This document shows, piece by piece, positions 573 through 59,700 of a DNA stretch of 64,000 nucleotides; the first letter of the stretch is position 1; each line of letters starts with the position of its first letter. The notes under the pieces are model-generated. The model was not told where the DNA came from, did no database searches, and saw nothing but the letters and a program-made list of their open reading frames with translations. Source of the DNA: Owenia fusiformis (taxonomy: Eukaryota > Annelida > Polychaeta > Sabellida > Oweniidae). The translations under genes and the position numbers were made by a program. Location of the stretch: positions 30,531,001 to 30,595,000 of the forward strand of contig CAIIXF020000012.1 of NCBI GenBank assembly GCA_903813345.2, given 5' to 3'.

Positions 573-3315
573 CTTCACATGATTTCTGATCATTTCCGAG
601 TTGAAAGCCTGGATCACAGTAACACTGAAAACCACCCTCTGTATCATTACAACCCACCTCACAACCATCCATGTTGCGTGCACATTCGTCGATATCTACA
701 ACAAAACTAGACAGTTTATTAGTGCCTGTTTGGATATGTGCAAAGAATTATGAGATTCCATTTTTTCAAATATATCGAATGCAACATAATATTCAAAATT
801 AAGTTAAAGTGATATTTCAACATTGTTTATCAATACTGACATTTTTCGAAAATGTGATTATTAGATCGGATGGGTTTCTCATAGAACCCAAGCTACAAAA
901 TCATAAAAATTGAAATGCATTTTCTTGAGAAGACAATACTTTACTTTACTGAATACATTTTAAATTGTAGCTTTATCAAATTAAAAGGTTAGCTAAAACT
1001 CATATCCACTAAATTTTTTTATCATATAAGTTCAGGGGAACAATAGGCTACGTTATCTGGCCCTGATTAACCACAAGGGGCAAAACATCTAAAAGGGCAC
1101 TACCTACTTGCATCTAGTTAAGTAAAGATGAAATGTTACACATACTTGCACAATGAACTTGAAATATGCACATACATGTGCAAAGAACTCGGAATGTTAC
1201 ACATACTTGTACAATGAACTTGAGCTGTTACACATACTTGTGCAATGAACTTGAAATGTTACTCATACTTGTACAATTTTCGGATCCCGTTAGGTCAAAC
1301 CCAGTCTGACAGAAACACACAGGTGGATCGGATGTATTCCTACAGCCATACTCGCAATTCAGATTCTCATCCACACATGGTAATAATGATGCAGGATCTG
1401 GAAACGTTAATGCTCAAGTCACATTTGATTTACGACAACCGTACGGCGGCCATAGCTTCCCAAAATCGAGAGAATTTGCTGCGTGAAAATCGCAGTACGA
1501 TGTAGATTTTCTGTATCGATTTTTTGAGAGTAAATGTGACTGAGGGTCTACTTTGTTTGCTGAAAGTGTAATACTTGTAAGTGATTACCAATTTAATGTA
1601 CGTACTGTGTATATGTATTACTTTATTTGTCATCTTTATCTTAAAAATATCATTTAGCTATGATTTCGGGTCTGACCCCAAGATGGTTTGTTCACATTTC
1701 AGAAACATTTTGATGAGAATGTAGAAGATGTAAACCAAGTTTTTGATATTGTTTTATCATTTGGGCCAGCTGCAGACACCCGGTATTTACCTCTTACACA
1801 CGTTTTCCCATCTGCTGTGAACCCTTCTTCACAGCTACACGTGAAGTTACCCTCTGTATTGTTACATAGTTGTTCACAGCCACTGATGCCCTCAGCACAT
1901 TCATCAATATCTGAAGCAATGTGTTCGGTAAATAAAATGGGATTATTGGCACCTGCACATGCTCATTATAGGCAAGTAGACCAAACAAATAAATTATGAG
2001 TTTAATATTTTTATATCCTGGGCCTATGGGGAAATTGGTATCGGTGCAAAGCTTAGAAAATTATCTATGCCGCGTGAAAAAAAATTGGGGTTTGGACAGG
2101 TGCTGTTGGTATTGGAACGGGAACGTAACGATATAATATGTCTTAAGTAAGAATAAACATAAATGAATTGAAACAAATTTAGTTTATCTTTAACATTTAT
2201 CTCGAAATTAAGCTTGCACATAAAATTGACACGGGAACGTGTAACACGTTGAAAACAAACGAATGTTGATATACTCTGATTCTTACATAGCACGCTAATA
2301 TACAAAATGTCACCTCATAGAAATGGTTACCAAAAAACATTTGTTACAGATACTAACTGCCAGAAGCTGGTCATAAAAACGAATGAGGTGACAGCAGCCC
2401 CAGCAAAATAAAAACTGAATTGACAAAAAGATCAGTGACATATTCTGGTGCTATTTTATGGAATTCTTTGCCAATTGTATTTCGAACATGTAAAACTTTG
2501 AATTCTTTTAAACACAACATTAAAAAGGACCTTTTGGAAAAGATGAATGGAAATACTATATAAGATCACATTCCATTTAAATTAATTATTTATATCTAGA
2601 CTTCAAAGTTTCTGTATTGCATCTAAACAATTTAGATAATGTATGTTATACTGTTATATATTATATGTTTTGTGATTGCTCTGTAATAATTTTTGATATA
2701 TGCACTGATATGCCCAATTACTAAGGGTGTCGAGTGCACATGCTTTGTACATTCCATTGTTATATTATCATGAAATAAAATTTAAAAAAATAAAAAAAAT
2801 AAAAAAAAATAAGTAATTATTATTTTGAGAGATGTGTTGGCTGGTCACCTTGACAATGTGTTTCATTTGTCGCTAAGTAACCTGGTGAACACGTGCAGTG
2901 ATAGCTTCCCTTCTCGTTGACACATTCCTGTTGGCAATCGTTTTGTGTATCGTTGGCACACTCATCAATATCTGCAAAGCAGTACTCATGTTAATACAAA
3001 TTTTTATATCAATGTCAAGCTAGTAAATGTATGATTGGTCAAAATCGGGTCACGTGTCATGAAATTCCGGTGGTATCCACGGGCTATATTTATCACCGCT
3101 CCCGGGAATTTTCTAAGAATCTATCATCTTGACGTAGCTACCCACCCACTTACCTATACACTTGAAATCAACCGTAATGTGACCGTCGGGGCACGAGGAA
3201 CAATTGAATAAGGTGCCGTTGATTTGTTGCTCCTCGGGTGTCATATCATAACAAATAGAGTCATTACCACAGGGGTCACCCTCACATCCATCTAGGTCAA
3301 TCTCACAGTCATCAC
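573..3315 (-). CDS. EGF-like domain exons (14-18) of the MUC4-like gene
   Basis: Exons 3154-3315, 2849-2971, 1791-1910, 1269-1397 and 573-695 are each phase 1 to phase 1 and each encode one cysteine-rich module. Exons 15, 16 and 18 begin DIDEC and have calcium-binding EGF spacing, with endings such as CSPGY and CEEGF. Exon 17 ([13 protein letters not shown]) is a non-calcium EGF-like variant. Symmetrical phase 1 exons let such modules be added or skipped without frameshift. The exon 18 donor (573) is followed by intron to the window edge, so more exons lie to the left. Confidence 0.85.
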
Positions 3316-6300
3316 CTTAAATAAAATACTTACATGTTATTTTACTTGACCAAAATTATATAAAATTGTCACAATGTTTAGTGACAACCTTATTCTTTAC
3401 GTATCTCTATCCCTTTTAGTCCTTTGAGTTTTTTAAGTGTTCAAATGTGCAAACAGTGTTTTCTTTTTGTATTCTCCCAAGATCTGTACCCTTTGCATTG
3501 GTTCGACTTTGCTTCTTTAACGAGAGCTTCGTCTTTAGGTACTTTAAAACTAGACTCTGCGCGCAGGGTAAAGGATTTGAGATCAGGTAATGTTATAACG
3601 AACTAATACATAGAAGCAGGACAAAAACACATATTTTGTTAGTAAAAAACAAATGATATCTTACCTTCCCAGCCAACAAAGCAATCACACATTGGAATCA
3701 TGAAGTAATCGCTCGATTCGGTTTGATTTTCGGCTTCAGTGCCAAACTCACACTCTCCCTGCCCACTGGAACAGTTTGTACACATCCAAACTGTAATCCT
3801 AAACTCCGGGGATCTCGCTCCCAAATCATCTTCAGCGAGAAATCTAGAGAAGTAAGTGAACGTGTTTATGTTGAAAATGAAGAAAAAATGAAAAACGATA
3901 AAATATATATAATTATTCAGAATTTTGAATTATAAATTATTTTTTGACTGTGGAAATCCGTTGACATACTCATGATTAACCAATGGCGTCATGTCTACAT
4001 ACCCTCGATAAATTGAATGGTGTCAAGCCCGTTGAAATACTCATGATAAACTAATGGCGTCAAGTCTGCATACTCATGATAAATTGAATGGTGTCAAGCC
4101 AGTTGAAATACTCGTGATAAATGAATGGCGTCATTTCTGCGTATTCACGATAAATTGTACACACGATAAATTGAATGGTGTCAAGCCCGTTGATATACTA
4201 ATGATAAACAAATGGCGTCAAGTCTGCATACTCATGATAAATTGCATGGTGTCAAACTCGTTGAAATACTCATGATACTCATGATAAATTGGATGGTGTC
4301 AAGTCTGTTGAAATACTAATGATAAATCAATGGCGCCAAGTCTGCGTATTCATGATAAATTGAATGGTGTCAAGCCCGTTGAAATATTCGTGATAAATTA
4401 ATGGCGTCATGTCTGCGTATTCACGATAAATTGTACACACGATAAATTGAATGATGTCAAGCCCGTTGAAATACTCATGATAAATCAATGACGTCGAGTC
4501 TGCATACTCATGATAAATTGCATGGTGTCAAACTCGTTGAAATACTCATGATACTCATGATAAATTGGATGGTGTCAAGTCTGTTGAAATACTCATGATA
4601 ATTCAATGGCGTCATGTCTGCATACTCACGATAAATTGAATGGTGTTAAGTCTTTGGGAGTATATGAAAATGTCCTGGTATCGTTATCTAAGATGGCTCC
4701 GTCGGGGAGCGGTGAGGTTGGTATAACGTAGATGATTGAACTGTCGTTATCCGATACAGATATAGCAAACTCCGTGAGAGACCCAACTGTGAAATTCTGA
4801 CTAAGGTCAACACTGAGCTGAGGTGCAAAATTCTCTACAATGAAAGAAAACTTATATAAATTTTCAATTTGTCTATTGTATAACAGAAGAGCATACTATC
4901 ACTGTTTTATTTGCAATGGTTGATGTAATTTGAGAAATTGTAATTGGTTGAGAATGGCCAAGATACTTGCATATTATCTTTTTAATGATTTTTTGCCATT
5001 GGCACACAAAACACACACTCACTATTTACAATGCTTCATTTATTTAGAGATTAGCAATAAAAAACAAAGAACTCTTGGCAGAAGAATTGCGTGTTAGGTA
5101 TGAACTTGATTATGGGAAATATATATTTTGTTGCTCAAATGTAAAATCATTAAATCATTGAATAGAATGCTGTTTGATGTTGGCCGCACTCTGTAAGTTA
5201 ACTGGTCTAGAGAAAGCATTTTAACAGCATTTATTCAAAGAGAAATATAATCATGCAATATCTGTTAGCAATGCCTGGGTCACATTTGCTCCGATTCAGC
5301 GGCCGCTGCCCGGCCGATGGAGTATTCTCGTCAAAAACTTAATACAATTTTGAACAAAATATTCAATCGGGCGGGCGCCGGCCGATGAATCGGGGCGAAT
5401 GTTACCCAGGCATTAATGATTCTCCTTACTGACCGCAAGTTTTTTTCTCAGACGTTACAAATTATGTGAATAAGTCATATATTGTAACAGACTATTCTTT
5501 TTAATTTCATACCTGCTTGCAATGCGGCATGTGCATTTCCAGCGTTGGTCGACAGCGTTGCATTCGCCACGTCCTCTTCTCCCGTTGCTAGGTAGTCAAA
5601 CACACAAGATATTTCTGACCTACACATCGTATTAGCAGCGTCTCGTTGTTCTTGAGTGAAGTCCGAGAGGAAGAGAGGTTCGAATGAGGCATCTGAGAAA
5701 TCGTCTGTCGAGGATCCATTCGGGTACCAGAATATCGATTGGTCTTGTGTTAATCTCCCTGGAAGGTCAAACGATCAATGAAGTTATCCATGTGGCGTTC
5801 TTGTGTTTCACAAAAATAGTAAAATCAGGTTCTACACGTGAAATAGTCAAATCGATGATTATAATCATATTAACTGTATATAGTGTTTACAATTTGGGAA
5901 ATCTAAGTATTAATAAAATCACAGTACATGTATGTATATGCTCACGTTCAACCCCTTAAAAAGGAGATTTGCCTTTTAACCAATTGCCGAACACCATCCA
6001 CAAAAATTGAACACTACAGTATAACACTACACTTGAGGAGGTGGTGTTTGTTCCTATTTAAAAATTTATGTTTTCTCGTGAATAAGATAATACTTTGAAA
6101 CATTGGTGGATTAGTACACATGTAGAAAGACATGACATGTTTCAAAAAATTCAAATGTGCTTGTTTACTAGTACTGAATCTCATGTTTAACAGATGGACA
6201 TTCTGATGGGACCCTTAATAATACATACACAGTTCTCCAAATCCGCTATAGATCTCCTTGTCATTACTATCTTCTGAGAGGACTGTACCATCTGGCTTTG

Positions 6301-9300: not shown

Positions 9301-12300
9301 TAGCTTAAATTACGACTTTTGGTCCTTTCCCTTTGGCACTTGTTTGCACATGTGTTGGTTAGGAATATCAGGACGATTTTACCTGCTTTTGGGCGGTACC
9401 ATAACGATCCTGCCAATAATAGCACCACCACCGGGAGTAATAATAAGCGTTTTGATAGCAGTAATGAGGATATGGATAGACCTCCTTCCACGTAACAACC
9501 GCCATCCAAGTTGCTTCAAAATCAGCATTGTTTGTATATCTTGATACGTCTCTACTTGCAAGATCGAGCATATTTTGGGCTTGGTCGTTATTTGCGTCCT
9601 CTCTGTTGTAAGTCTGGTAATACACCCCAGTGGTCGCTGATGTGAGCCGGGGATCGTGGTCAGCCCAAAACGAGGCAACTATGGCAGTGCTCCTCCTATT
9701 TAAGGGGAACCGCCGGGCCCAATAGTTACGATACGCCCTTCCAAAACTTATGAGCCCATTGGAACTCACCTAAAGTTAAAAATCGGTGAATGAATGCTAG
9801 TTTTCTGTGAAGATAAAAATGAAAATGCTGAGTATGTTTGAGAAAATGTCAAGTATATTGTGGCACACCTACGTAAAAGTTTCGATATTTTCTGTGTCCA
9901 AAAAATAGTCCCCTTGGTATGCGAATGGCGTTTGAGGTAATATCGTCTCCATCTCGTAGCTTTGTATCTCCTTCATTATACCCATGTGGATACAGCTGTG
10001 CAGTAGTTGCTATAATACATGGGACGAAATCATAGAAATGAAATTTCCAAGCTTATTATATACATTTTAATCCCTGTAACGTAGATCTCTGCCTGACCAT
10101 ATTAATAAACTACATTAACTCCAATTGTATCATTTTCAATCAATATACCAACATTAGCCGTGTGGGCTCATCGTCATTCTCCGAACAAAGGCCTCCAGAA
10201 TTCGTACATCCTTCGATAAAACATAGTGGATGGTGTCTGGAGCCTTGCGTTTGGAGGATGGCTCATCGTCAGCCAAGTGGCTAATTTGGGGCATTAAAGG
10301 AAAGACTACCAAATAGCCAATTCAAAAATAACTAATTTGATTGATCCTTATTGCTGATGAGAAGAAAATGCTTACCTAAAGGTGTAGCAGCTGCAGTCAA
10401 AACGTCACTTACGATTGACGTAGCAACCGTCGTTTGAGCTTGTGTTGTTGGAAGAGTAGGATTTGTAGCTGATGTTACAACTGCATCAGTCGTTGGTGCA
10501 TCTGTTTCGACTATTACTGATTCTGTTGTTATGTCATCAGTTTCTGTAGTAGGATAATCTGTTTCAACAATTATTGATTCAGTTGTAATGTCAACTGTTT
10601 CTGACGTAGGTTCATCTGTTTCAATTATGATTGATTCAGTTGTAATGTCAACTGTTTCTGACGTAGGTTCATCTGTTTCAATTATGACTGATTCTGTTGT
10701 AATGTCATCTGTTTCTGTCGTAGGTTCATCTGCTTCAATTATGACTGATTCTGTTGTGATGTCATCTGTTTCTGTCGTAGGTTCATCTGTTTCAATTATC
10801 ACTGATTCTGTTGTGATGTCATCTGTTTCTGTCGTAGGTTCATCTGTTTCAATTATGACTGATTCTGTTGTTATGTCATCTATTTCTGTCGTAGGATCAT
10901 CTGTTTCAACAATGACTGATTCAGTTGCAATGTCATCTGTTTCTGTCGTAGGTTCATCTGTTTCAATTATTACTGATTCTGTTGTGATGTCATCTGTTTC
11001 TGTCGTAGGTTCATCTGTTTCAATTATTACTGATTCAGTTGCAACGTCATCTGTTTCTGTCGTAGGTTCATCTGTTTCAATTATGACTGATTCTGTTGTT
11101 ATGTCATCTATTTCTGTCGTAGGATCATCTGTTTCAACAATTACTGATTCAGTTGTAATGTCAACTGTTTCTGACGTAGGTTCATCTGTTTCAATTATAA
11201 CTGATTCTGTTGTGATGTCATCTGTTTCTGTCGTAGGTTCATCTGTTTCAATTATTACTGATTCTGTTGTGATGTCATCTGTTTCTGTCGTAGGTTCATC
11301 TGTTTCAATTATTACTGATTCTGTTGTGATGTCATCTGTTTCTGTCGTAGGTTCATCTGTTTCAATTATTACTGATTCTGTTGTGATGTCATCTGTTTCT
11401 GTCGTAGGTTCATCTGTTTCAATTATTACTGATTCTGTTGTGATGTCATCTGTTTCTGTCGTAGGTTCATCTGTTTCAATTATGATTGATTCAGTTGTAA
11501 TGTCAACTGTTTCTGACGTAGGTTCATCTGTTTCAATTATGACTGATTCTGTTGTAATGTCATCTGTTTCTGTCGTAGGTTCATCTGCTTCAATTATGAC
11601 TGATTCTGTTGTGATGTCATCTGTTTCTGTCGTAGGTTCATCTGTTTCAATTATTACTGATTCTGTTGTGATGTCATCTGTTTCTGTCGTAGGTTCATCT
11701 GTTTCAATTATGACTGATTCTGTTGTTATGTCATCTATTTCTGTCGTAGGATCATCTGTTTCAACAATGACTGATTCAGTTGCAATGTCATCTGTTTCTG
11801 TCGTAGGTTCATCTGTTTCAATTATTACTGATTCTGTTGTGATGTCATCTGTTTCTGTCGTAGGTTCATCTGTTTCAATTATTACTGATTCAGTTGCAAC
11901 GTCATCTGTTTCTGTCGTAGGTTCATCTGTTTCAATTATGACTGATTCTGTTGTTATGTCATCTATTTCTGTCGTAGGATCATCTGTTTCAACAATTACT
12001 GATTCAGTTGTAATGTCAACTGTTTCTGACGTAGGTTCATCTGTTTCAATTATTACTGATTCTGTTGTGATGTCATCTGTTTCTGTCGTAGGTTCATCTG
12101 TTTCAACAATGACTGATTCAGTTGCAATGTCATCTGTTTCTGTCGTAGGTTCATCTGTTTCAATTATTACTGATTCTGTTGTGATGTCATCTGTTTCTGT
12201 CGTAGGTTCATCTGTTTCAATTATTACTGATTCAGTTGCAACGTCATCTGTTTCTGTCGTAGGTTCATCTGTTTCAATTATGACTGATTCTGTTGTTATG

Positions 12301-15300
12301 TCATCTATTTCTGTCGTAGGTTCATCTGTTTCAATTATGACTGATTCTGTTGTTATGTCATCTATTTCTGTCGTAGGATCATCTGTTTCAACAATTACTG
12401 ATTCAGTTGTAATGTCAACTGTTTCTGACGTAGGTTCATCTGTTTCAATTATTACTGATTCTGTTGTGATGTCATCTGTTTCTGTCGTAGGTTCATCTGT
12501 TTCAATTATTACTGATTCAGTTGCAACGTCATCTGTTTCTGTCGTAGGTTCATCTGTTTCAATTATGACTGATTCTGTTGTTATGTCATCTATTTCTGTC
12601 GTAGGATCATCTGTTTCAACAATTACTGATTCAGTTGTAATGTCAACTGTTTCTGACGTAGGTTCATCTGTTTCAATTATTACTGATTCTGTTGTGATGT
12701 CATCTGTTTCTGTCGTAGGTTCATCTGTTTCAATTATGACTGATTCTGTTGTAATGTCATCTGTTTCTGTCGTAGGTTCATCTGCTTCAATTATGACTGA
12801 TTCTGTTGTGATGTCATCTGTTTCTGTCGTAGGTTCATCTGTTTCAATTATTACTGATTCTGTTGTGATGTCATCTGTTTCTGTCGTAGGTTCATCTGTT
12901 TCAATTATGACTGATTCTGTTGTTATGTCATCTATTTCTGTCGTAGGATCATCTGTTTCAACAATGACTGATTCAGTTGCAATGTCATCTGTTTCTGTCG
13001 TAGGTTCATCTGTTTCAATTATTACTGATTCTGTTGTGATGTCATCTGTTTCTGTCGTAGGTTCATCTGTTTCAATTATTACTGATTCAGTTGCAACGTC
13101 ATCTGTTTCTGTCGTAGGTTCATCTGTTTCAATTATGACTGATTCTGTTGTTATGTCATCTATTTCTGTCGTAGGATCATCTGTTTCAACAATTACTGAT
13201 TCAGTTGTAATGTCAACTGTTTCTGACGTAGGTTCATCTGTTTCAATTATTACTGATTCTGTTGTGATGTCATCTGTTTCTGTCGTAGGTTCATCTGTTT
13301 CAATTATTACTGATTCTGTTGTGATGTCATCTGTTTCTGTCGTAGGTTCATCTGTTTCAATTATTACTGATTCTGTTGTGATGTCATCTGTTTCTGTCGT
13401 AGGTTCATCTGTTTCAATTATTACTGATTCTGTTGTGATGTCATCTGTTTCTGTAGTAGGTTCATCTGTTTCAATTATTACTGATTCTGTTGTGATGTCA
13501 TCTGTTTCTGTCGTAGGCGCATCTGTTTCAATTATGTCTGATTCTTCTGTTGTTATGCCATCAGTTACAACTTCATAAGTCGTAGGTCCAACTGTCGTAG
13601 CGATAGTAATATTTGTTTCATTTGTAGGATATTGTGTTATGACGCTTTCGGTAACTGCAAAATTAATTAGTTCTAATGAATTGGAACACGTACATATCTG
13701 CATCCATGAGAGTAGTCAGACACCGGGTAGGCAAGGTTACAATTGTCTTGTTAAAATGGACAATACATTATGAAACTACGAAATTATGTTTAATGGTTAC
13801 ATGCTTTATCTTATGCCTTGAATGCCTAATTTACATCGCCTACATCAGTGGTCGGTCCAATCGTATCGTAAATATTCTAATGATTATCTATTTTTCAGTC
13901 AGGCTTAATTAAACAGAAAGAGGATTATATGGAAATATTGACATGCTGTTTGGAAAGATTTTTTCCAACTCGATCATTTCACTATGTTTTGATGTCACTT
14001 GCTGCAATCAAATCTATAATTTCCTAAAAAATTGTCGATGACGATGACAAGTCACAGTTTCCATTTTATTTTTCAATTAGATATCGATCAGTGCGTAAGA
14101 TTTTCTTCCTGTTTCAGTCCTGATCGTTAACGGTGGTAATAATACTAATAACGTCATTTCTGCGGGCAATATAGTGAAATATTGGACCTTGGGCCTTGGG
14201 CCCTCGGTCCAATATTTAACTATATCGCCCTTCGAAATGACGTTATTGTACTAATCATTAAGTCATTGACTTGCTACCTATTCAAATATTAATCCCTTAA
14301 AATGCCAATTGTTAAACAAACAATCTTAATCTGATTTTTTAGATATTTGAGATATCTCAAATATAAAATTCGAAGTTATCGAGCCTAAAAATAACCAAAT
14401 TTATAAGAATTGAAAAATGGCATATTAAATCGAAAATGAAAAACCAAAGGATAATTCTGAAATAAGATCAGAACTTTTAGAACTTGAAGAAAAACGACAT
14501 GACATAGAATAATGTGAGCAAACGTTCTACGTAAATTGCCCACACATTTAAATGGTTAAGAAATGTCCTCCTATAGTTAGTCCATAGTGACATCCTGATA
14601 GGTTATACCCGAATCCTTTGTCTAGTGTTTTAACCAAGCACCTTTTATATAAAATGTTATCCGAAATATGATTATCATGAATAAATTTTTATGGGTTAAG
14701 TTTATTCTTCCTTTCATCTTTCAAAAATTTAGCAAACACTACTAACAATGCGACACAGAGCGCGTTAAAACGGATCAAGGTCATATGAAAGTAAAATGAT
14801 TGATTATTGAAGTATTGTAACATGAAATAGGAGCCAACGGTGAAGTAATCACAAATACAATAATAAATTGAAATTGTATTTATTGCTGAGAGCTGCCTTA
14901 AATGAATCTATGCGGGCACTATCCTTTACTTCATTTGGTAATTTTGGTAGTATGTTAAGACAAATAAAATTCTAAAATTCCCAGCCAACCTTAATATTAT
15001 TCTATACTTTGGCTTGACTAAATGATATGTTGACCTTGTCATGGCTATGTTGTGATATTTGAAAAAAGCTTTGTGAATATTAGAGGAAAATGGTTAAACA
15101 TATAAATATAAATATGGAGACTCTTTTGAATGGAGCAGTGTGCTTTCTAAAATGAGAATAGTTAATTAATTTTATACATTCTTTTGAGTTAAATGGATTA
15201 AAGCAAGAACGTTTTTCTTGACATAGCCCCAAATGATGTTTAACAGTAGTTAATATGAGAAAGAATCAATAAACGGAAAAGTTTAAGTTCATAATCATGA

Positions 15301-16832: not shown

Positions 16833-16930
16833 TCTTCCTGCCTCGTGTAACGTGGTCCTCTAGACATTTAGGGCTCGAAGTACGTTCGGGGATGACGCCA
16901 AAATGAATGTGTAGGCCCAAGAACTCTATT
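16833..16930 (-). promoter_or_regulatory. 5' flank/5' UTR of the MUC4-like gene, shared with the second AMOP gene
   Basis: Upstream of the start codon the sequence matches that upstream of 25518: both have GGCGT.ATC.CCGAACGTAC, then a GAGCCCT..A..GTCT stretch, then GGACCACGT. Conservation of about 85 bp outside coding sequence suggests a retained promoter or leader. No TATA box is obvious; the start site is not placed. Confidence 0.55.
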
Positions 16931-17074
16931 TTTCTTCCGCCTTTTGGAGGGGACAAAGAAGTTATATTTAACAACTGTGAGTAACACCCGGGACTGTTTG
17001 ATCAGCTTCATACGCCAATTTCTAAGAAGTTGGAATAGGTGGCAGGTCAGCACCTTTTGTTCTTTGTCACTATT

Positions 17075-17616
17075 ACAGGGTGACACACAAAATGCCAACC
17101 ACTTATTTTGAAATAACTTTCCCAATAATGAAGGAATCTTCATGAAGATTGTTGTATTTTATTTTGCATCAACAACTTTGAGATTTAGAGATATCACGTT
17201 TTCCGTCCAGGTATGCTCTCGGAGAAATCGTCGAAAACGTTCAAAAATAGCCATTAGTCTTAGTCTAGCCAATAGTCTTAGCCATTATTTGAGTCATTTT
17301 TGGATTGTTTTCACATATTTTCATTTAATATGCCATATTTGTTAAATAATGTTGTCAAATTTGAAAGACTGACTTGTTCATTGGGTAACATTTAAAAAGA
17401 CAGATTAACTAATTTACATTTTTGAATGATATTGTGTAAGAGCATCCTCCGCAGAAAATGAGATATATTTTAACTTCAAAGTTGTTAATGCTTTGCAAGC
17501 ATACCAATCTTTCTTTTAATGAACACTCTACACTGGACATAAGAAAAACAATGAAGATTCCTTCATTGTTGAGGAAGTTATTTCAAAATTGGGTGGCATT
17601 TTTTGACTCAACCTGC
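17075..17616. mobile_element. Mariner-like MITE, degenerate
   Basis: The left part ACAGGGTGACACACAAAATG matches the family at 8286. The inverted right part is degraded (GGTGGCATTTTTTGACTCAA). A shared inner motif (ATTCCTTCATTATTG and its complement) confirms the inverted layout. Confidence 0.6.
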
Positions 17617-17849
17617 ATTATCACCCACTCTTTTTCTATCACCCAAAATGTTGGTAAGTTTTTTTTGATTTTTTGATCCAAGCAAAGCCATAATTCACAT
17701 ACATTACATTTATGTTGTAAAGATTTTTTAGAACGCTAATGTCAACACTATTTGTAATTCATGGAGGCAATGACTGTACCAGGATCCCCCAGGGATGTTA
17801 GTTTTGGGGTATTATGGGTCATTGAGGCCTGATCTTTACTACAAGTTGA

Positions 17850-26330: not shown

Positions 26331-26339
26331 TATGATCTA

Positions 26340-27813: not shown

Positions 27814-27819
27814 ATCGGC

Positions 27820-31400: not shown

Positions 31401-32713
31401 TTGCGAAATAATACACTCTCTTTTATCAAAATAAAGATGGCAGAAAATCGCGTTTTTAACAGCACTGGTCAAAACGACCATTACTGTATAAATTACTATA
31501 CTAATTTTCGACATTCTGTAAAAAAGTGTCCTTTGAACAAAAGGGATCAGACATTGAGTTAATTATCACTTTGCCCTTTCGATACGTTTGCGCTGATCGA
31601 TGCAAATGTTAACGTATCGATATTATCATTGACATTCTCAAGTACATGTTTGTGATAGAAGTATGGTTCCACAAAAGTAATATTAATTTTCAGGTTGTGC
31701 TGAAAAAATGTCAAGGATCGGATAAATCTTTTAACTAATATTTTTAGCAGAATATCTGTCAAAATGAGATTTGTGAGAGTTTTTCCTGAAGTTTTTCCTA
31801 CACTGGGTGTACATGTAGTTTTCTTTTGTCGTCTGTGAATAAAATTGTAAAAGTTACAGACTCACATTCTCCAGCTTCGGTGCAAATGTGGTCGCCATCT
31901 TCCGGAACCATGTGACTATTTACACGTTCTACAGGCATGACGTCATGAGTTTCGCCATTTGGTGACGTAAATTTGAGTCCAAACCCAATATCGTAATTTT
32001 CTGTTTTAAATTCCCACCTGGAAAATAGAAGAGAATAATGTTGACTTCAATGTTTGGAATAACTTTTCTCAATCAGAAAAGAATCTTCATTTTTTGTGAA
32101 GAAAGAGCTCGAGTCTACGTAGCGCCAACGACTCAGAGATTAAGATATGCTATATTAGCCATTGCACATCTTTTGAAATGTGCAAAACGAATATCCGTCT
32201 GTTAAAAATGTCATTGGAAAAGATACTCCCTCGGTGAAAATATGTTGCACCCTTCACTTAATCGCACTCACACTGTGTATTCTAATTTCCGTTTGTTAAC
32301 ATGTCAATTAAGAGGATACTCCATTAGTGAAAATATGTTGCACCCTTCACTTAATTGCACTTACATTGTGTATTCTAATTTCCGTTTGTTAACATGTCAA
32401 TTAAGAGGATACTCCATTGGTGAAAATATGTTGCACCCTTCACTTAATTGCACTTACATTGTGTATTCTAATTTACGTTTGTTAACATGTCAATTAAGAG
32501 GATACTCCATTGGTGAAAATATTCTGCACTCTTCACTCAATGGCATTCACAGTGTCCGCTGTTATCAACTTACCTTAACATCGTTCCAGGTTTCTCGATT
32601 TGAAATTTCAGATCTTTAGTTTTTCCTGGGTCGACACTAGATGTCACCATATTCTCAGTGACTGATATGTCTTTTAGGAAAAACTCTTCAGGAACGTCCC
32701 CTCCCCAGCATAT
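28430..32713 (-). CDS. SEC14L: SEC14L exons 10-12: GOLD domain and C-terminus
   Basis: Exons 32574-32713, 31866-32017 and 28430-28599. The beta-sandwich marks are FQIEKPGTMLRWEFKTENYD (phase 2 join), DIGFGLKF, NSHMVPEDGDHICTE, GEY|TIVFDNSFSWTRDKKLFY across the last join, and a terminal SKMKDASI. The last intron contains the RT-bearing LINE in the same orientation. Confidence 0.88.
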
Positions 32714-35700
32714 CTGCAAAGAATTAATTTATTTCGTTAGTGGCAGCCCGTAATGGCCATCTATAAAAGGCATTGTGTACATCTAGCTGATGCGTTAACA
32801 ATTGCAAGGTAAAACTACCTATACTATAAAGGTATTATTTGTTTATTCCTGTTGTTGTGGTATCGAACATTTCATAGGCTTTGGGTAATAGAAAAAATGT
32901 TTATTAAAAGATGACAGTGTAGTTCACCTGTTTATATATTAGCGAGAATAATAGCATATATGTATAAATAGTACAAACAGTGGAAATTCTTTAAGATTGT
33001 CGTACCGCGCTTTTAGGTAAGGAATATTGCCTTGTTTTTTACCTTGAAATTATAGGAATATGGCTACGAATGTTGGTACGAATTTGAACATGATATATCA
33101 ACTTGGTCAATGTCTGTATCATGAAAGCAACGAAAACGAAGATTAAAAACGAAACTTTTTCTGAAACTGTATGTTTGAAATAAATTTCATCTTCCATTTC
33201 CATTTAAAGTCCATCTTCTCTGCCAGTGCCCCCTCACCAACAATATCTATAACCGTACCCCTCGAAGAAGGAGTGCACCTAAGTGGTACAAGACCGCATC
33301 GGGTACACAAGGGATTGGGCAAGATTACCGCCATAATGTACCTTAGAAGGGCATTTTGGGTCACCATCCGGATCTGTCTGGGAACCTCCAAGAAAAGCAG
33401 GTAACTCTTCTGTGTCTATATATTTGAGTAATTCTTCTTTGAAATTACCTGAAACAAAATATCAGCAGCTATAATGAGAGAAAATTGAAATTTCACATTC
33501 GTTTTTTGTTGATTGAGAGCCACTTGATCAGAATTTTGTTCTAGTTTTGAATAGACATATCTTAGACCGCTTTCTACATTTTTGATTCTGCATATATTTT
33601 CTTCCAAAATCGAAATGTATTAAAATTTTGAATGACATTTGCATAGTCATAAACGATATAAACAATGAAAGCAGATATTGAATAATCAAATGTAACTTTC
33701 CAGTGTTCCAAATGGTCAACTATTAGCGCACGTGGATAAAAAAACAAGAGGGAGTTTAAGCTTGCAATGTTTCTCACAACCTAAACGTGAACGGAATAGA
33801 TATAAGCGATGCATTTATATGGGCGATTGGGCATACGTATAGGTTAGCGTTTCGATTTTATATGCAAGCTAAATCTCCCTATTAAAAACGCCGAGATGCG
33901 GAACTATTGGAATAAACCAATATCAGTGACGAAAAAACACACGAACCTCCTAAAACGTGGATTTTGTTCTTCATGTGGTCGCTTATGAGAGGCCTCCCTA
34001 GTCGCCAGATGATTGGGAAAATACTTGGAGCTGAAATTTAGATGAATATATAAATAAGGGCTAAGGGTTGTTCAAAAAGTTTTGCACAAATATATCTAAT
34101 TATGAAAATAATACACAAAGTTTGTTCAAAATTGGTAATGATGTGTCCCTATCTTGTTTCCTTACACTGTCAAGGTTTCATACACTCGTTATGCAAATAG
34201 GCTTATCAAAGAGGTTACATTTTGCCCTAAGTGAGCATGGCAAGACACCATATTTTGATTCAATGATGTATTCAGGATCAAAATGTGGCGAGGCAAATGT
34301 AAAAGGTGAAGCAAATTGAGGGGAAATATGGTATATTTCTATTTTCGGACTTCATTTGCACAGTTTGAATTCGAAATAATATTTTTCTGTAAAGTTTTGC
34401 TGAAGCAGTTACGTCGCCTGCTTCATGCCGGGCTACCCCCTTGGATAATAATAGATTAAAATACAATTACACTTTGGGTTCAGAGCATTTAAAGGTTTTC
34501 ATATTTTGCATTAATATTATGTAATAAAACATAATGAAGCTAGACCCATTACACACATGACAAAACATTTTATTTTATTTCAAATGATAAGTTATAAAAA
34601 TGAGAGCGAATAAGTGAACAAATTAAGATATTTTTGTTTTGAAAAATTCTGCAACTTGTTTTCTCAATTCTTGTCATCTAAGTAGCCAATGTGGTTTACG
34701 ACTTACCATTGACTACAAATAATTTGTAGACAGATTCTGGATAGTTATCTTCTAGAATTTGTACAAGATGTGTGTACATTGTCATGCCAGGCCGCCATAG
34801 TTGTTTCGTGCCTGCGTTACTCATGTCAAATACAACAACCATTTGATCTACTTTTTTACCTAACTGAAAAATAAAGAAAAATGACGAGGATTTAACCAAG
34901 TATTCTCGATATTAAAGTATTCATTATATCATATTTGATATATATTGATTCAGGTAGATGGTCTATTTTCATCAACAATGTTACGATTCAAGGGTAACCA
35001 AAGGGCATTCTTCTTCTAAATATATATTGCATGTTCAAGAAATAGCATCTTATGTCATGCTAAAGAAATAGCATCTTATGTCACGCTCAAGAAATAGCAT
35101 CTTATGTCACGCTCAAGAAATAGCATACTATGTCACGCTAAAGAAAAAGCATTCTATGACATGCTCAAGAAGTAGCATCCTATTTCATGCTAAAGAAATA
35201 GCATAATATGTCATGCTAAAGAAATAGCATCTTATGTCATGCTCAAGAAATAGCATCCTATGTCATGATAAGGAAATAGCATCCTATGTCATGCTAAAGA
35301 AATAGCATCCTATGACATGCTTAAGAAATAACATCCTGTTTCATGCTAAAGAAATAGCATCGTATGTCATGCTAAAGAAATAGCATTCCATGTCAAGCTA
35401 AAGAAACAGCATCCTATGTCATGCTAAAGAAATAGCATCCTTTGACATGATAAAGAAATTTTCACGGCATTCGAAAAATCAATAACGCATTTGTTGTGTA
35501 CAGTTGCTAAACGAAAAGTGTGAAATGTGTGAAAAGAATTTAAGCCCAAGACTCAATGCATTGTGGCTGCTTCATTCCACTCAGATGTTGTTTCCTAAAC
35601 TTTGCATTTTCCTTGCGGGGTCATGCAAAGATTTGAAAATAACATCTTCGTGGAATGGTTCAGCACACAATGCACTGGGTCCAAGGCTTAAATCCTTAAA

Positions 35701-44700: not shown

Positions 44701-47700
44701 AGAGAGAAAAGGCACGGCAAGTCCTACAGCATATACAAGTGCGACTGCACTAGTAGCAGCGGCAGTAGTAGCAGCTGCAGTAGCAGTAGTAGCAGCGGCA
44801 GTAGTAGCAGCGGCAGCAGCAGTAGCGGTGGTAGCAGCAGGGAACGCACGGATAGATGCTACAGTCGTAAAACCGAATGTCGCTGCTACTTAGAAGGGTC
44901 TTACTGCTGCATTGGGTGCTGCAACCCCGGCTGTGGGTCAGCTCCATGCTGCTATTCTTCAGGCTGTCACTGTTCTCGCGGTAAATACGATAGTTCAAGC
45001 GACTCAAGTGACTAGCTAGCCACACAAGTCACACCAGTCATAGCAAATAAAGGTCTATGCACTACTGGTTCAGTAGTAATAAACTATAATAGTACTCCGG
45101 ACAGGTTGAATCACTTGAATGATGCAGTCGTGTTTTTACTCTATATTTGCAATAGAACGACCATTCTTATTGAAATTTTCATGTTTTATTCTGGTGACGA
45201 TTTCTAACATGGAGAAAAAATATTTTAACGAAATTCCAAATTTTATGATTTTGATAGGCTTTTTTCAAAAACAATCCACTGTCAATAAAATACAGGTTTT
45301 TGCTTGAACAATTGAACTTTTTACATCATTTCAAAGGCCGCCTAAGGTCTTTCCAGATGTATTTGATGCCATATAAATTATGGCTGATTATTGTTGTTAC
45401 TCTTTGTCATATTCAATTATATAACAGTGCATTAGGCCAATAAAAAACTTATCACTCTGGGTCATGTTTCCTCAGCTGATAACGCACCTTTTTTGCTACT
45501 GGGCTTTTCCGCCACCGTCACTCAGTATGTATGCAACCCAATGGAACGTAAATTGTACAATGGTTCGAATATGTCAGGTTTCCCTGACAATTTCATGATA
45601 GAATTTGACACAGCTATATGAACATCACTGAAGGATCTAATGCCGGGAATACTTTAAGTTGGATATTCGTAATGTTTACTTCATTTTGGACAGTATTGAA
45701 CAGTTCGATCGGGTTGAACTCGTATCCGTTGACAAGAAGATTGACTTCCTAGGGAACACTTCACGAAACAAGACCCAGAGCAACACGTTTTTAATGGCCT
45801 AATGCACTGTAATAATATTGAATATGACTAAAGTGAATAACAATAATCAGCCATAATTGTTAATATACCAACAAATATATCTGGAAAGACTTTAGGCGGC
45901 CGAAAATTCAATAGCCAGACAATATTTGAAATTACGTTAAAAGTTCAATTGTTCAGGCAAAAGCCTGTATTTGATTGACAGTGAAGTGTTTTGGTAAAAA
46001 TATTTATTTTTCATGCTGGAAATTGTCTCTAGAATAAATTTTGAAAATTTAAATAAGAAAGGTGGTTCCATTGCAAATATAGAGTAAAAACATGACTGCA
46101 TCATTCAACCTGTCCGAGGTACTATATACAGGATGTCCTAAAATTGTTTTACTCATATATGAGACAAGCCTTCTTTCCGTGTTTAAAAAGGTAGATCCTT
46201 TCACAATATAAGGACAATGTTTTTTCCAGTTAGCTTAGTTTTTAGCATTTAGCACACATGGTCTATATACAAGTAACCTCCTTCGATATCGATGATCGAT
46301 GCAGATATTAATGCAATTTTTGGCATTAAAAATGGATAACAACCTTTTTTCTAAAACTAAAATGAGTTACCCCATGAAACATTCAGATATGATTTCATGA
46401 TTATTTGGTTGTTTGCCATATGCCATATTTCTTAATCATTTACAGAGTTATTCTATGTTACCTCGGTACAACATTGGAATATGGGCCATGTTAATAAAAC
46501 CATTTTTCTTAACTAATTTTCTAGACTAAACAGATTTACCCGTTTAAACTTTTAGATGATTAAGATGATTACATTTTCTCTCGGGTGAAGAAGTTTCAAG
46601 AATTATTCCCTTATCCCAGAGTAACAATTAGTCAATGTTTATCTCGGTACATTTTTGGGACACCCTGTAGCTTATAATACACATTGCTTCGTCCAAATAA
46701 ATTTTCCTGGCTAAAATGACATTCTCAAAGAGCAGATTTCAGTTTGTAATTTTTTAAAATATCATGCTATATACTTGTACATTCAGGTTATTGACTTTGA
46801 TATAACTGTGAAGAGACTCACTGCGTACCCAAGAAGAAGAAAAAACAGCACGAAGGGGTCGTTTTTGGCGTGTGCACCGTATACACTAGGGTGTTTTCAA
46901 ATTTCTTTTGAATGAATAGATGGCGTATTTGGTTGAAATATAGACCAAAAAATGAATATCTTTTACGTATTATGAATATCATCGCCATCTTTCATCAGAC
47001 AATGCAAAAAAACTTGACATAAAATGTTGACGAAGGAGCATGTGGGTTATCGCAAACAATTTCAGAAGGCTATATCTTGGATTATGACTATTTTCTGACA
47101 ATGAAGACAAGTTTATCTTTTACATCAATTCATTATCTCAAAGAAAATGCATGGTAATGCACAGTAATAATAAATTCAAACAAACTCTGAGATATTTAAC
47201 TAGCAATTAACCCATCAACACACTTTTTGACCCCATTTTGAAGATGTTGACTCCATTTTCACCAAAAATCCAATCATTTTTTACAATGTTTAATGTATTA
47301 CTATTCTTTATTTTGATGTATCAAGTAGTTCTTGAAAGAAAAACTTAATTGCTTTAAGATCAGTGTTCCCCATGTTATTTCTCCATTGAAAAATCTCATG
47401 CTATCCATTGGTTTCAGTTCATTTTGGTCATCCAAATTGAATATCTTTAAAGTCCCTGGAGCAATCAAATTTTCCTTTTAGGAAATCGAACATGTCTCAA
47501 AGCACATTATAATTATGCATTCAACAATATAATAGTAGGTTGCATTTTTGGTGAAAATTAGGTCAACATTTTTGAAAATATATGTTGATTGGTCCATTGC
47601 CACTTCAATATCACTTAGGTCTGATTAACTAATTATCATTATATATACTTTTCTTGAAGATAATGAATGGATCTAAAAGATACACCCATGTTCATGATCA

Positions 47701-50700
47701 AAACATATTCATAATTGAAGTTAGAATCGTTTGAAATTGTTTGCGATAACCTACATGCTCCTTTTATCATTTATCCTGAGCTCCAATGTGTCCATTTTGG
47801 TCTGTCTTTGGTCTCCTTTAAATAAACGGGTACTAAAAACACTGAAAAGAACGCATTGAGTCACTTTAAATAAAGCTTGGTTGTGAACCATAAAAACTTA
47901 TTAAGCTTGAGCATATTCGATAAAAATGATTCGTTATAAACATAATCTTTGCAAAAGTCACATAATGCAATTTGAGTCTACGGAATTAAGATAAACATTT
48001 TCGTCATAAGTAGAACATGTATTTATCAATTTAAAGTGACATTTCACTTCACGTTGAAGATTCCATGTTTAGTTATTAGACTCTTTTCTTGTGTACAACC
48101 TCGTGTGATCTAATTTGATCAAAAAGTAAGTGCTACGAACTAATTAAACAAGACATTAAACACATTTAGAGCGAATATGAATTCAAACATTCTTATCAAA
48201 CATGTTTATTCGAACATATTTTACTTTTACTTTTTGAATTGAAAAGTTGATTTTGAAGGATTTTTGTTCGAAATATTGTGAAAATAAAATTTTAGTCGTC
48301 ATGCACATACATCGTTAAACATTCACACACAGCAGGGCAAGGTATGTTCGATTCCAGCCAATCCGAACACGCTATTTTATATCACTGCATTCCATTATAT
48401 AACCAATAAGCAATTCAAGGTCACTAGTTAAACGGTTGTCAATGTGACAACTGGATAGTACAGGTTGAGATTGATACTTTGCAAACTCGACCCTTGCAAT
48501 AGGTTTCGTTGAAGATATATTATTTTAGTAATTACCTATCTTTTAGGTATATATATTTCTGTATTTCGACCAATTCTGATCATACACATATAGTTTAACA
48601 TAAAAGGTTATAAAAGGTTATGAAGGAAAAAAATATAACAAAATACCATTAGTAGCAGCGGCAGTAGTAGCAGCTGCAGTAGCAGTAGTAGCAGCGGCAG
48701 TAGTAGCAGCGGCAGCAGCAGTAGCGTATAGGTGTTTTTGTTAAAAATATTTTGCAATGTGTGAAAAGAATTTAAGCCCAGGACTCAATGCATTGTCGAA
48801 TGAACATTTCTTTCGGGCGTTCTTTCCTAAAATTAACATTCGATTCTGTACATCTCGTGCAAAGTTTGAAAAGCAACACCTTTAATGAAGGGTCATTCCC
48901 CATTGCTCCGAGTCCAACTATTGAATGCTTAAATAATTTACACAATAAATCATGTACATCCTAACATATTTTAATTGACAGAATTAAAAAAAATATATAT
49001 ATGATTTTTATCCACGAATGGATATGATATCTGCACGAGCGAGTGTAGCAGGAGATATGCAGATATCAATATCCATGAGTAATGCTTCTTAGATATTTTG
49101 AATAATATTTCAATCTATATGTAGTGCATTTATATATTTTGTCCTTATTTCACATTTTAATAAATCAGGCAAAGCATACAATTGTTGGTTTTATTTTTGA
49201 ACGTTGAGTAGACATAATTCTTTAATTTAAACAAAATATAAAAAAAGAGTTTTATTTTTACAAGAATATGTTATTGTTACAGTTACCAGTGCGTTTAATT
49301 TAAGCATGCTATTTTGGTTATATTTCTGTGCCATATCTCGGAAATAATTTTGATATGACCACGTATAAACATCTTTAACATCCAGCAGGGATGTTATTTT
49401 TCTTTAGCATGTCAGAGAAATAAGTTTTTTGCCAAGCCAATTTTATTCATATTTCTTAAGCCTGTCATTTATAAATCTTATGCATTTTGCTTTATTTCTT
49501 GAGCATGTCATAAATAAATATTTAACATGCCGTTTTGTTAGATTAAGACCCCAATACTACTAAAATCCCCATCACTTTTAAATTATAGTGTAAATGGGGG
49601 ATCTATAATCGATCCTCGAGAATTCGAACCAACTGGTTTTATTGATGTTATGATTATAGTTTCTGCATTGCGATGATTATGTTTAACTTTACTTTATCAA
49701 AAAACATCCGGGGACTTAAGATTAACCTTGAGGTACACCAGTTTAAATTAAAGATCCGATCTGTTAAAAGCATTGAACGATTGATTTCCGAACTGGTGAA
49801 TTCGTAACTGGTGTGGAATAATAAGGCATCTGTTTGCGTCGCCAATATTGGTTTTCTGTTCTTGGGATTTGTGCTCATGGCCATGATGGAGGATTTGGAA
49901 TTTTCAAGCAAGTTTACATCTAATTGTAATGAGACAATATCTATAATATGGAAATGAAAGTTACCTTTACTTCCTGCTCTGCCATGTCCTGCATCTGTCT
50001 CTCAGATATCAATAATTTGGTCTTTTCAAAATCTACTTTTTTACAACTGTACATTAACCCTTTCATATCCAAATGTCCAAACAATTCAACTGCTATCGGT
50101 CGACCGTCTTTGTCATGTCCTACTATGGGACCACCCGCCAGATATTTCTTCAATACCTGAAATAAGATATATCAGAGGATGTAGTTCAACATTTTAACCA
50201 GTATTATACTGTTTTGAGTTTAGTCTATCCTAAGAATAAAACAGCCTTACTAACAGCCCGAAGATTGAGGCAACGCGTTCACTATGATTAACGTAGCCTA
50301 ATGCAAATATGTTGTGGAGCTTTTCGAAAGCAGAACGAATGGGGGGGGGCATGTCGACATGTACATATTTCATTCACTGGGTAAACATAGGTCCATGTAT
50401 TTAATAACTAGTCGGTTTTACATGTTCTGATACGAGTTCTCTCAACCTTAACTCAGCCACTATACCCCCAATAAGCTATGAATTTCATCTTTATGCGCAT
50501 CAAGTTCCAATTATCATAACTTTGCCCCTTTACCCCAATCACCTTGGTGTTTACGCCAAAAAGTATCTTATACATGTGGCATAAGGTAGAAAAATAATAG
50601 AAGCACATACACCCCACCCCCACCCCCCCCCCCCCCCACCACACCCCCCTGCGGAAATAATGGTTAAAATGTGTAGCTCCCTATTGTTTCCATACACCTG

Positions 50701-56700: not shown

Positions 56701-59700
56701 TTCAAAGAACGTTTTTTGTATAAAGGGGGCGTAAATCTTTTTTTTCATAATTACAAATATCCTATTCTTTCAGACAATTGAGGATAAGAAATAAATTCCT
56801 AATCGATCCTTCTAAGATAGAAGGGTTTCGATGTTGTTTGGTTTTACCTGTAGACATCAGGACATGAAGAAGAAATTGATTAACACGGTAACTATTTTCC
56901 TCTCAAGGTGCCAGCCGGTGCCGTTTAACCTGGGAGCATAGAGTGTACAATGTTTTCATCAATTTTTTTTTTATATAAAGCACATTCTTTCAATGTTGGG
57001 AAGCTACTGCTGTTGTCGTATGGTGAAATATGAATGAAGCCAGGGACATAAAACTGTTTTTGTATATGTCTTTGATGAGGCATAACCCTTGAAGGGTTCA
57101 CAATCACATCCACTTCGAAACAATTCGAACTATTTACATTCCCTGACCTTGATCACAACACAAATGTCACGTGATTCTCAAGGCGCTACCCATTCCCAAG
57201 GAGGATTGGCTCCCAGAATGCAATCTCGATATTTTCCAACAATGAAAATGTCGTGCAAAAATGGCGACTGTTTAATTTTGAATTTCGTAATTAAGACATC
57301 CTTTAAGAACCCGGGACTTGGTATGTGTAATCGGTAAATTTCTTACCTGTCGGTACATTTCTTCAGCTTTGTCCACGTCAAGGTCCCGGGCTGGAAATAA
57401 ATATAAATTAAGATAACATAGTTCCAAAATTCTCGAACAAATAAAGCATGCATATTTTTGTAGTGTATCCCATATCTTTTCATATATGTCACGTCCATTT
57501 TGGGTTATAACTTATACGAAGAGAATGTAACTTCAAAACCGATCATTGCTTTAATTACAAAACTAAAAGATGTCAGGTTGACGAGAAGCCACGAGAAGTC
57601 CATCAACAGATGCTCTATTGTCACATTTGGCCATGTTTTTGTGTAGCTGTGCGTTTGGCTGACACTCACCTTTCAACCATTTGAACAGATCTTCATCTGT
57701 TTCGAAACGACTTGCTATGTCATCCACTTGCATTTTGAACTGCAAATTTCAAAAATAGGTTTTAAAGGATCATCAAAGAAGGCTGGGTTAAAGGAGCATT
57801 CTCTACTTAAGTTGTTGCCGAAAATATCGAATTCATTTTGACTAAATTGGCTGATAACTTTAAACGTATAGTAGAACCTATGCAAGTGGAACATCTTTGG
57901 TACCTCAAAATAGTATTCCACTTGGCAGGTGTTCCACTTATACAGGGTCATTTTACAATTAACGAATTTGGTACGTGGATTTTGAAAAGCGTTCCATTTA
58001 CAGGTGATCCACTTGTAGAGTTTTACGCAATGTTTAATCAAAATGTTCAAAAACTCAATATTTCAATAAAGTTAATTCAGTAAGCATGTGAGATTATACC
58101 TTATTTAGGACATGGGATTTTACCTTATTTAGGACATGGGATTATACCTTATTTAGGACATGGGATTATACCTTATTTAGCTAGGACATGGGATTATACC
58201 TTATTTAGGACATGGGATTATACCTTATTTAGCTAGGACATGGGATTATACCTTATTTAGGACATGGGATTATACCTTATTTAGGACATGGGATTATACC
58301 TTATTTAGGACATGGGATTATACCTTATTTAGGACATGGGATTATACCTTATTTAGCTAGGACATGGGATTATACCTTATTTAGGACATGGGATTATACC
58401 TTATTTAGGACATGGGATTATACCTTATTTAGGACACTTACCTTCTCAAGGCATTGTTCTTCCTTTGTTGTCTGGACTTTCGTTTTTGGGTCCGTATAGT
58501 CGAAATTGTGGCTCAAACGGTACTGAAAAACAAACCAGTTTTATTGTCAAGTAAAAGTTTTCTCCTTAATACAAGACAATTGTTCTCAAACTGGCGATAC
58601 ACTCCCCATCAAATGTATGACAATATACTCCCAACCTAATGTTTTGCAATACACTCCCCATTAAATGTTTGGCAATACGTATACACTCCCCATCAAATGT
58701 TTGACGATGCACTACCCATTGGCAAATCTTACCTGAGATAGCCTGCTTATGTTTGAAATCAATTTCACCTCAATTACAATTAGATATGACATATTATAAG
58801 ATCGAATTTTCGAATTGTTCGTTTTAAAACATCCAAACAGTTTCTAGCATGCAGTCTAAAGGAAAAAAGAAGTTGTTGTCAAAATATCTTGGAATGGAGT
58901 GTACTTCCGCTCGGATACATCTTAGCCCATTAGAAATAAACGCTTCATTTTTTACATTTCTCACCTTCTCCTCTGTAACAATGACGCATATTTAGCCCTA
59001 TAAACTCTCTCAAAATTATGTTTTAAGGACAGTGTAAAAACACCAGGTAGACTAAATTTTATTGATTAATAACTCAGAGGCATATTTTATTTTATCAAAT
59101 ATAATTTCAATTTATATTTTGTCAGTAGAAAAACAATATATTTTCTTCCTTTTGTGTACATTTTGGTTAAACACGTCACACGACTAGAAAATCTCTCTTA
59201 GCATTGTCTAATGGCCCACCCCTTTAAAAGCTAGTTTGACATTTTCGACGTCACATAATCTACAACATCTTGAAAATATCTATAATTTAAGGTCGATGGG
59301 GTTCCGACAATATTTCCATCCAAATCATTCTATTGTCAATTTTCCCGTATTTTGGCACGCATGCCTATATTAACTTGAAAACCATCTTCTCTCGTTTTTC
59401 TTGTTCAACTGTATGTAACACCAGGCATAATATAACTGTTTGTGATTATAAAATATTTTGTAAGTACAATAGTGTCAAAAACTAGTTTCATGGTCGATTT
59501 TATTAATTGACTATTTTTTGAATTGGGTGATCCAAGCGCGTGCAAGGTATGCGAGGCAGGCAATCTCGCTTGTGCTGACTGATCGCACCATACCTCAGTA
59601 CCTGTCCAATGTCCATAAAATTTATACAATATATTACATCGGTGTTTGACAAAATGTTATTCATAGTTGAGCCGGTTTTAGATTGTTTAATATCGTGACT

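What the first reader, a model, noticed from the sequence alone, without database searches (positions are those of the whole stretch)
1133..58442. Four minisatellites that each begin at a 5' splice site and are built from copies of the exon-intron junction
Arrays at 1133-1275, 3960-4645, 32215-32574 and 58095-58442 all start at the donor of a minus-strand exon (MUC4-like exons 17 and 12; SEC14L exons 10 and 2). In each, the unit aligns to the last exon bases plus the first intron bases. The period differs (about 31, about 40, 93 and 24 bp), so these are independent events with one rule. Roughly 30 introns are in the window, so four such arrays look non-random. Possible explanations are replication or repair slippage promoted at splice junctions (for example by R-loops), or selection for intron growth.
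Basis: seen in the sequence. Interest (0 to 1): 0.85.

Follow-up and report, generated by a model that had tools for sequence, protein, structure and literature searches.

The report
Tandemly repeated exon-intron junctions in introns
In this marine worm genome, short stretches covering the border between a coding block and its spacer have been copied many times in a row inside the spacer, as was already described in lancelets, and it matters because cells must pick one real splice site next to many identical decoys.

Summary
All four arrays exist and start within -21 to +28 bp of a donor. Only two are built from the junction: array 2 (21 exon bases in the unit) clearly, array 1 (9 exon bases) by a continuous alignment; arrays 3 and 4 hold no exon sequence above chance. 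The kind is known: 'mirage' minisatellites of amphioxus (PMC3087553, PMC3902484). This genome is a lophotrochozoan, probably the annelid Owenia fusiformis. In sampled kinesin, myosin and kinase exons, 4 of 156 donors and 5 of 157 acceptors have tandem junction copies, so it is no donor rule. Array edges are about 2.3 times denser at junctions than inside introns (combined P 0.02, donors alone 0.06): a modest preference is suggested, not proven. A paralog carries array 2 at the same junction with 225 instead of 672 intronic bases; outside the array the introns measure 112 and 114 bp. Two kinesin introns carry at least 17 equal-scoring tandem donors. Most likely, local tandem duplications straddle exon edges, and selection keeps those whose outermost junction still works. 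Decoys are probably ignored through exon definition (inferred).

The parts
1129..1277 (-). Array 1: 31-bp unit, 4.8 copies; unit holds 9 exon bases plus the donor; four decoy GT sites score higher (2.1-2.2) than the authentic donor (0.6)
1269..1397 (-). EGF-type exon whose authentic donor (ACAA|gtatga) is the 5'-most copy; the next exon 573-695 continues in phase (NCT|NIDEC)
3958..4650 (-). Array 2: composite array with 20 donor-like sites counted; unit includes 21 exon bases; clearest junction-spanning array of the window
4630..4834 (-). Exon of the MUC4-like gene with authentic donor TTATC|gtgagt, joined to exon 3665-3843 (PFNLS|FLAEDD)
   Evidence: paralog in L181
32222..32545 (-). Array 3: 93-bp unit, 3.5 copies; starts +28 from the donor; no exon match in the unit
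32574..32713 (-). SEC14L exon upstream of array 3 (donor TTAAG|gtaagt), next exon 31866-32017
58092..58436 (-). Array 4: 24-bp unit, 13.9 copies; starts +5 from the donor; no exon match above chance
58442..58522 (-). Exon upstream of array 4 in the SEC14L gene (donor GAGAAG|gtaagt), next exon 57670-57739; homology across this junction is weak

Best explanation
Arrays 1 and 2 are 'mirage'-type minisatellites: a local tandem duplication straddled an exon-intron border, then grew and shrank by slippage or unequal exchange. Such arrays arise throughout introns and at both kinds of splice junction, perhaps two to three times more often at junctions. Selection keeps only forms in which the outermost copy still works (5'-most donor, 3'-most acceptor), so the extra copies lie on the intron side as decoys and lengthen the intron. 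Arrays 3 and 4 look like ordinary intronic arrays that start close to a donor. The decoys are probably ignored because splice sites are paired across the exon (exon definition), which favours the copy nearest the other end of the exon. Shown here: exon sequence in the unit, copies on the intron side, both junction types, copy-number divergence between paralogs. Inferred: the molecular mechanism, correct splicing, and exon definition as the reason for tolerance.
For: Exon bases in the units of arrays 1 and 2. DNA searches with arrays 2, 3 and 4 found only their own place, plus one paralog for array 2 (this search skips common words; array 1 was not searched). Junction copies at 4 of 156 donors and 5 of 157 acceptors (score 36 or more); two further acceptor-side arrays seen outside that count (L041; the next kinesin exon in L069). 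No donor of 156 has copies on the exon side; in L041 and L069 the last copy is the one that continues into coding exon. Paralog L181: exon 180 of 200 bases identical, array at the same donor, intron 337 against 786 bp, remainder outside the array 112 against 114 bp. Decoy ladders with equal donor scores in L067 and L071. PMC9225289 (abstract and passages): exon-defined minigenes with two identical 5' splice sites used the upstream one exclusively.
Against: A purely position-blind origin is strained: pooled array edges are 2.3 times denser at junctions (P 0.02), and acceptors with copies number 5 against 1.0 expected (P 0.004, counting overlapping control centres as independent). The array 2 intron without its array would be about 114 bp, a length at which intron definition would favour the wrong copy; there only 5 of 20 sites, the authentic one included, keep GT, so tolerance may rest on decay of decoys. 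No RNA data were available.
Confidence: 0.75

Rival explanations
1. Splice junctions are real hot spots of tandem duplication, because of microhomology of AG|GT motifs, R-loops or repair; arrays are born there clearly more often than elsewhere in introns.
For: 4 array starts at 23 window donors, shift P 0.002, post hoc; sample: 8 starts in 14,400 donor-edge bp against 9 in 39,336 interior bp, 6 ends in 14,850 acceptor-edge bp against 5 in 28,759, pooled 2.3-fold, P 0.02; acceptors 5 against 1.0 expected, P 0.004; two kinesin genes have different arrays at the same conserved exon end (L071, L089).
Against: Donors alone P 0.06, bootstrap 0.7-6.0 or P 0.18; control centres are not independent; 1 of 8 donor-side arrays is strongly G-skewed.
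Confidence: 0.35
2. Coincidence plus ascertainment: ordinary intronic minisatellites, four of which lie near donors, singled out by eye.
For: Arrays 3 and 4 have no exon sequence in the unit; intron interiors carry arrays too.
Against: Arrays 1 and 2 contain the junction itself, and junction copies were found at 4 of 156 donors and 5 of 157 acceptors chosen without regard to repeats.
Confidence: 0.15
3. The arrays are functional: decoy ladders tune splicing or add protein modules, or intron growth is selected.
For: In L071 five decoy donors lie in phase before the first stop at +324, so their use would add 19-residue modules; array 2 lengthens its intron.
Against: Units 31, 91, 67, 71, 61, 110, 94 and 86 of junction-spanning arrays are not multiples of three, 57, 42 and 159 are; use of the nearest decoy would shift the frame or run into a stop at array 1, L067, L089 and L144; array 2 length is not kept between paralogs.
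Confidence: 0.05

Closest known systems
Mirage minisatellites of amphioxus (Adh3, globins; also TnC and PGBD5)
   Different: Lophotrochozoan host (Lox5-type gene with KLTGP; meaning of the motif recalled); longer ladders than the 3 and 6 repeat units given for BflGb6 in those passages (at least 17 donors in L067 and L071, 18 acceptor-side copies in a kinesin gene); splicing and allelic variation not measured here.
Internal tandem repeats at exon-intron boundaries of human paralogs (PMC2812944)
   Same: Minisatellite-size repeats at an exon-intron boundary that differ between paralogs (passages).
   Different: There linked to formation of novel introns; here an existing intron grew and no new intron was shown.
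Intron gain by tandem genomic duplication (AGGT model; PMC4974935, search listing only)
   Same: Tandem duplication that copies splice signals.
   Different: No new intron was shown here; only extra copies inside existing introns.

Membership tests
Mirage minisatellite | Repeat unit spans an exon-intron boundary: arrays 1 and 2, and sampled junctions | tested here: met
   Arrays 1 and 2; in the sample 4 of 156 donors and 5 of 157 acceptors
Mirage minisatellite | Repeat unit spans an exon-intron boundary: arrays 3 and 4 | tested here: not met
   Exon-only score reached by 67 and 126 of 156 unrelated donors
Mirage minisatellite | Authentic junction at the array edge, extra copies on the intron side | tested here: met
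   No donor of 156 has exon-side copies; in L041 and L069 the last copy continues into coding exon. Authentic here means required by frame and homology; use was not measured
Mirage minisatellite | Both 5' and 3' boundaries can be duplicated | tested here: met
Mirage minisatellite | Splicing is not disturbed | not testable with these tools
   No RNA data
Mirage minisatellite | Copy-number instability | tested here: inconclusive
   Paralogs differ (225 against 672 intronic array bases); alleles and somatic variation not seen
Intron gain by tandem duplication | A new intron absent from relatives | tested here: not met
   Array 2 sits in an intron that the C7 paralog also has; other introns were not compared
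Mutually exclusive exon array (kinesin C2 array) | Each copy is a complete exon with acceptor and donor | tested here: not met
   By eye on the output: copies 0-16 are followed by the same stretch with a stop (KNKPV.L*); only copy 17 continues as coding exon. No donor search was run on the unit

The most novel reading that the evidence does not exclude
Splice junctions of this lophotrochozoan are preferred birth sites of minisatellites at both ends of introns, giving (by extrapolation) thousands of natural ladders of identical decoy splice sites genome-wide. Under exon definition the ladders are silent; in short introns they are harmful and their decoys are selected to lose GT. The worm thus carries a genome-scale natural experiment on exon versus intron definition, and in places (L071) a ladder that could lengthen the protein in 19-residue steps.
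Probability: 0.25. Interest if true: 0.75.

Novelty: new member of a known kind. Interest (0 to 1): 0.5.

Why it matters
In the papers I could search, mirage arrays are reported from amphioxus only. Finding them at 4 of 156 donors and 5 of 157 acceptors in a protostome suggests a general by-product of tandem duplication that is tolerated at exon edges. The ladders make an old splicing question testable in vivo: among a dozen or more identical donors or acceptors at graded distances, which does the spliceosome use, and does the answer switch with intron length? They also show how an intron can gain hundreds of bases without a transposon.

Tried and rejected
Donor-specific rule: rejected, acceptors are hit as often. 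R-loop origin: not supported by G-C skew. Dispersed-repeat origin of the units: no other copies found for arrays 3 and 4, one paralog for array 2; these searches skip common words, so a missing match is not absence; array 1 was not searched. Host is amphioxus: rejected, a Lox5-type homeodomain followed by KLTGP lies on C1, and C1 is 62.2 Mb. The name Owenia fusiformis is inferred: 12 large contigs hold about 477 of 498 Mb (sizes, summed by hand), which agrees with PMC9977687 (passages: 505.8 Mb, 12 scaffolds, Hox cluster on chromosome 1). COX1 search found nothing.

Results that moved against my first reading: the intron-interior control held centres from loci with junction arrays. Without those nine loci it is 57 and 26 of 4088 centres instead of 71 and 39 of 4357; expected donors 2.2 (4 seen, P 0.18), expected acceptors 1.0 (5 seen, P 0.004). 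With the looser score of 30, 8 of 157 acceptors and 4 of 156 donors have copies. For this reason I raised the hot-spot rival from 0.25 to 0.35 and the novel case from 0.2 to 0.25, and lowered the best explanation from 0.8 to 0.75. Exon-interior centres also show some copies (19 down, 42 up of 3216 at score 36).

Slips in calls: the donor finder picked the second copy in array 1 (corrected by frame); the in-frame stop for L067 used a wrong frame, and one search gives +166; the showing of L071 copies at period 53 is out of register.

Papers: PMC3087553, PMC3902484, PMC2812944, PMC4039745 and PMC9977687 passages only; PMC9225289 abstract, outline and passages; PMC4974935 listing only; the original Adh paper was tried under an id recalled from memory, is not held under it, and was not read. 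That mirages are not reported outside amphioxus rests on searches, of whose hits I saw ranked listings (in one search, 12 of 74 papers; all 8, six of them by title and abstract start only).

Rows dropped before counts: of 236 myosin and kinesin hits, 135 were used: E up to about 8e-9 for myosin and 3e-9 for kinesin, fewer than two stops, 17 of the 18 kinesin-array hits and the 12 hits of the C9 myosin cluster left out. Of 144 kinase hits, 73 were put in and 71 used. Of 25 ABC hits, 20 loci were cut and 18 used. Donor and acceptor calls needed a minimum score, closeness to the hit end and a hit not ending at the domain border: 156 donors and 158 acceptors of 206 exons (157 acceptors had enough flank); with ABC 160 and 165 of 224. 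Junction-copy counts were made only on the 206-exon set.
Full report
1. Observation. TRF confirms the four arrays. The exons on both sides of array 2 read through as PFNLS|FLAEDD, those beside array 1 as NCT|NIDEC. The exons beside array 3 align to SEC14L2 without a break (1o6u_A); those beside array 4 are in frame but with weak homology (16.1 bits). Array starts lie at -9, -21, +28 and +5 from the donors. Alignment of the junction to the rest of each array, with 156 other donors as control, shows the exon end in the unit of array 2 (21 bases) and, shorter but continuous across the junction, of array 1 (9 bases); not in arrays 3 and 4.

2. How non-random? In the window 4 of 20 merged arrays start within -60..+30 of one of 23 called donors; circular shifts average 0.63, P 0.002. 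The window was chosen because of this pattern. I therefore sampled kinesin, myosin and kinase exons from the same assembly, chosen by protein-family hits. Tandem copies of the 40-bp junction occur at 4 of 156 donors (L067, L071, L089, L144) and 5 of 157 acceptors (L013, L069, L088, L046, L144) at score 36 or more; at score 30 acceptors are 8. The comparison is with intron positions in the first or last unit of an array: 71 and 39 of 4357 centres spaced 10 bp apart, or 57 and 26 of 4088 without the nine loci that hold junction arrays, which expects 2.2 donors (P 0.18) and 1.0 acceptors (P 0.004); centres are not independent. Array edges: 8 in 14,400 bp at donors against 9 in 39,336 bp inside introns (2.4-fold, P 0.06, bootstrap 0.7-6.0); 6 in 14,850 at acceptors against 5 in 28,759 (2.3-fold, P 0.13); pooled 14 of 28, P 0.02. 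So the phenomenon is general and affects both junction types; a modest preference for junctions is suggested but not proven, and it is not specific to donors.

3. Anatomy of the strongest cases. L067: kinesin exon end with units of about 91 bp and 16 decoy donors scoring the same as the authentic one. L071: units of 53 to 57 bp with 16 such decoys, the first five in phase and without a stop until +324. L089 and L144: one equal decoy each. Array 1: four decoys that score higher than the authentic donor. Kinesin on C2: 18 units of 159 bp, each with acceptor and coding bases; the last runs on into the rest of the exon. L069 holds, besides the counted acceptor, a four-copy acceptor-side array at the next kinesin exon, again with the last copy running on. 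In these cases the junction that frame and homology call for is the outermost copy: 5'-most donor, 3'-most acceptor. Which copies are used in RNA was not measured.

4. Paralog test. The DNA search with array 2 found one relative, on C7. L181 is a paralogous gene: 180 of 200 exon bases identical, and the same intron. Its array reaches 225 bp past the donor, against 672 bp in the window (array low end 3958, donor at 4630); the introns are 337 and 786 bp; the parts outside the array are 112 and 114 bp. The array most simply predates the paralogs, and it accounts for the whole length difference. In the window 5 of 20 sites, the authentic one included, keep GT; in the paralog at least two decoys keep GTGAGT.

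5. Mechanism. Local tandem duplication (inferred slippage or unequal exchange), perhaps more frequent at junctions; purifying selection removes events that break exons or junctions. A duplication across the border is harmless if the outer copy stays in use. Under exon definition that is the expected choice: PMC9225289 reports exclusive use of the upstream of two identical 5' splice sites in exon-defined minigenes, and an intron-side preference in short introns (under about 250 nt). The introns with arrays in the window are 556 to 786 bp. The array-free length of the array 2 intron, about 114 bp, is in the short class, where decoys should be harmful; their loss of GT there fits but is one case, and a single early mutation spread by amplification would look the same.

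6. Known or new. PMC3087553 (passages) describes this as 'mirages' in amphioxus globins and Adh3, at 5' and 3' boundaries, and proposes intron gain; PMC3902484 adds TnC and PGBD5. The present genome has a Lox5-type gene with the KLTGP motif (the meaning of the motif is recalled), so it is a lophotrochozoan, and its 12 large contigs and Hox cluster on C1 agree with Owenia fusiformis (PMC9977687, passages). Within the searches made (ranked listings) I saw no report outside amphioxus, apart from the related human case PMC2812944. I file arrays 1 and 2 as new members of a known kind, in another phylum, and arrays 3 and 4 as ordinary intronic minisatellites.

Noticed in passing
G000:C2:23266359-23269174 (L041, L104): Kinesin gene with 18 tandem 159-bp copies of acceptor plus coding exon start; only the last copy runs on as a full exon.
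   Followed up: partly
L069, copies at 1600-1879: Four-copy acceptor-side array (unit 93) at a kinesin exon that was outside the counted set.
   Followed up: partly
G000:C9:37986009-37994334: Row of 12 hits to the same myosin-head segment (Pfam positions about 18-84) at irregular spacing; perhaps alternative exons of a muscle-type myosin.
   Followed up: no
window 33342-33448 and downstream: After the called SEC14L donor the intron reads on in frame as VHYGGNLAQSLVYP, resembling the start of the next exon (ICWGGDVPEEFF); possible relic of an overlapping exon (read by eye).
   Followed up: no
L071 (C6:40.7 Mb) and L089 (C8:26.5 Mb): Two kinesin genes carry different arrays (units 57 and 67 bp) at the same conserved exon end (SSRSH..FTIV.TQ).
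   Followed up: partly
window 10489-13545: 57-bp repeat, 53.6 copies, in a frame open over 1127 codons on the minus strand and 1006 on the plus strand; probably a mucin-type repeat exon.
   Followed up: no
window 44747-44840 and 48650-48726: Two similar AGC-rich repeats about 3.9 kb apart.
   Followed up: no
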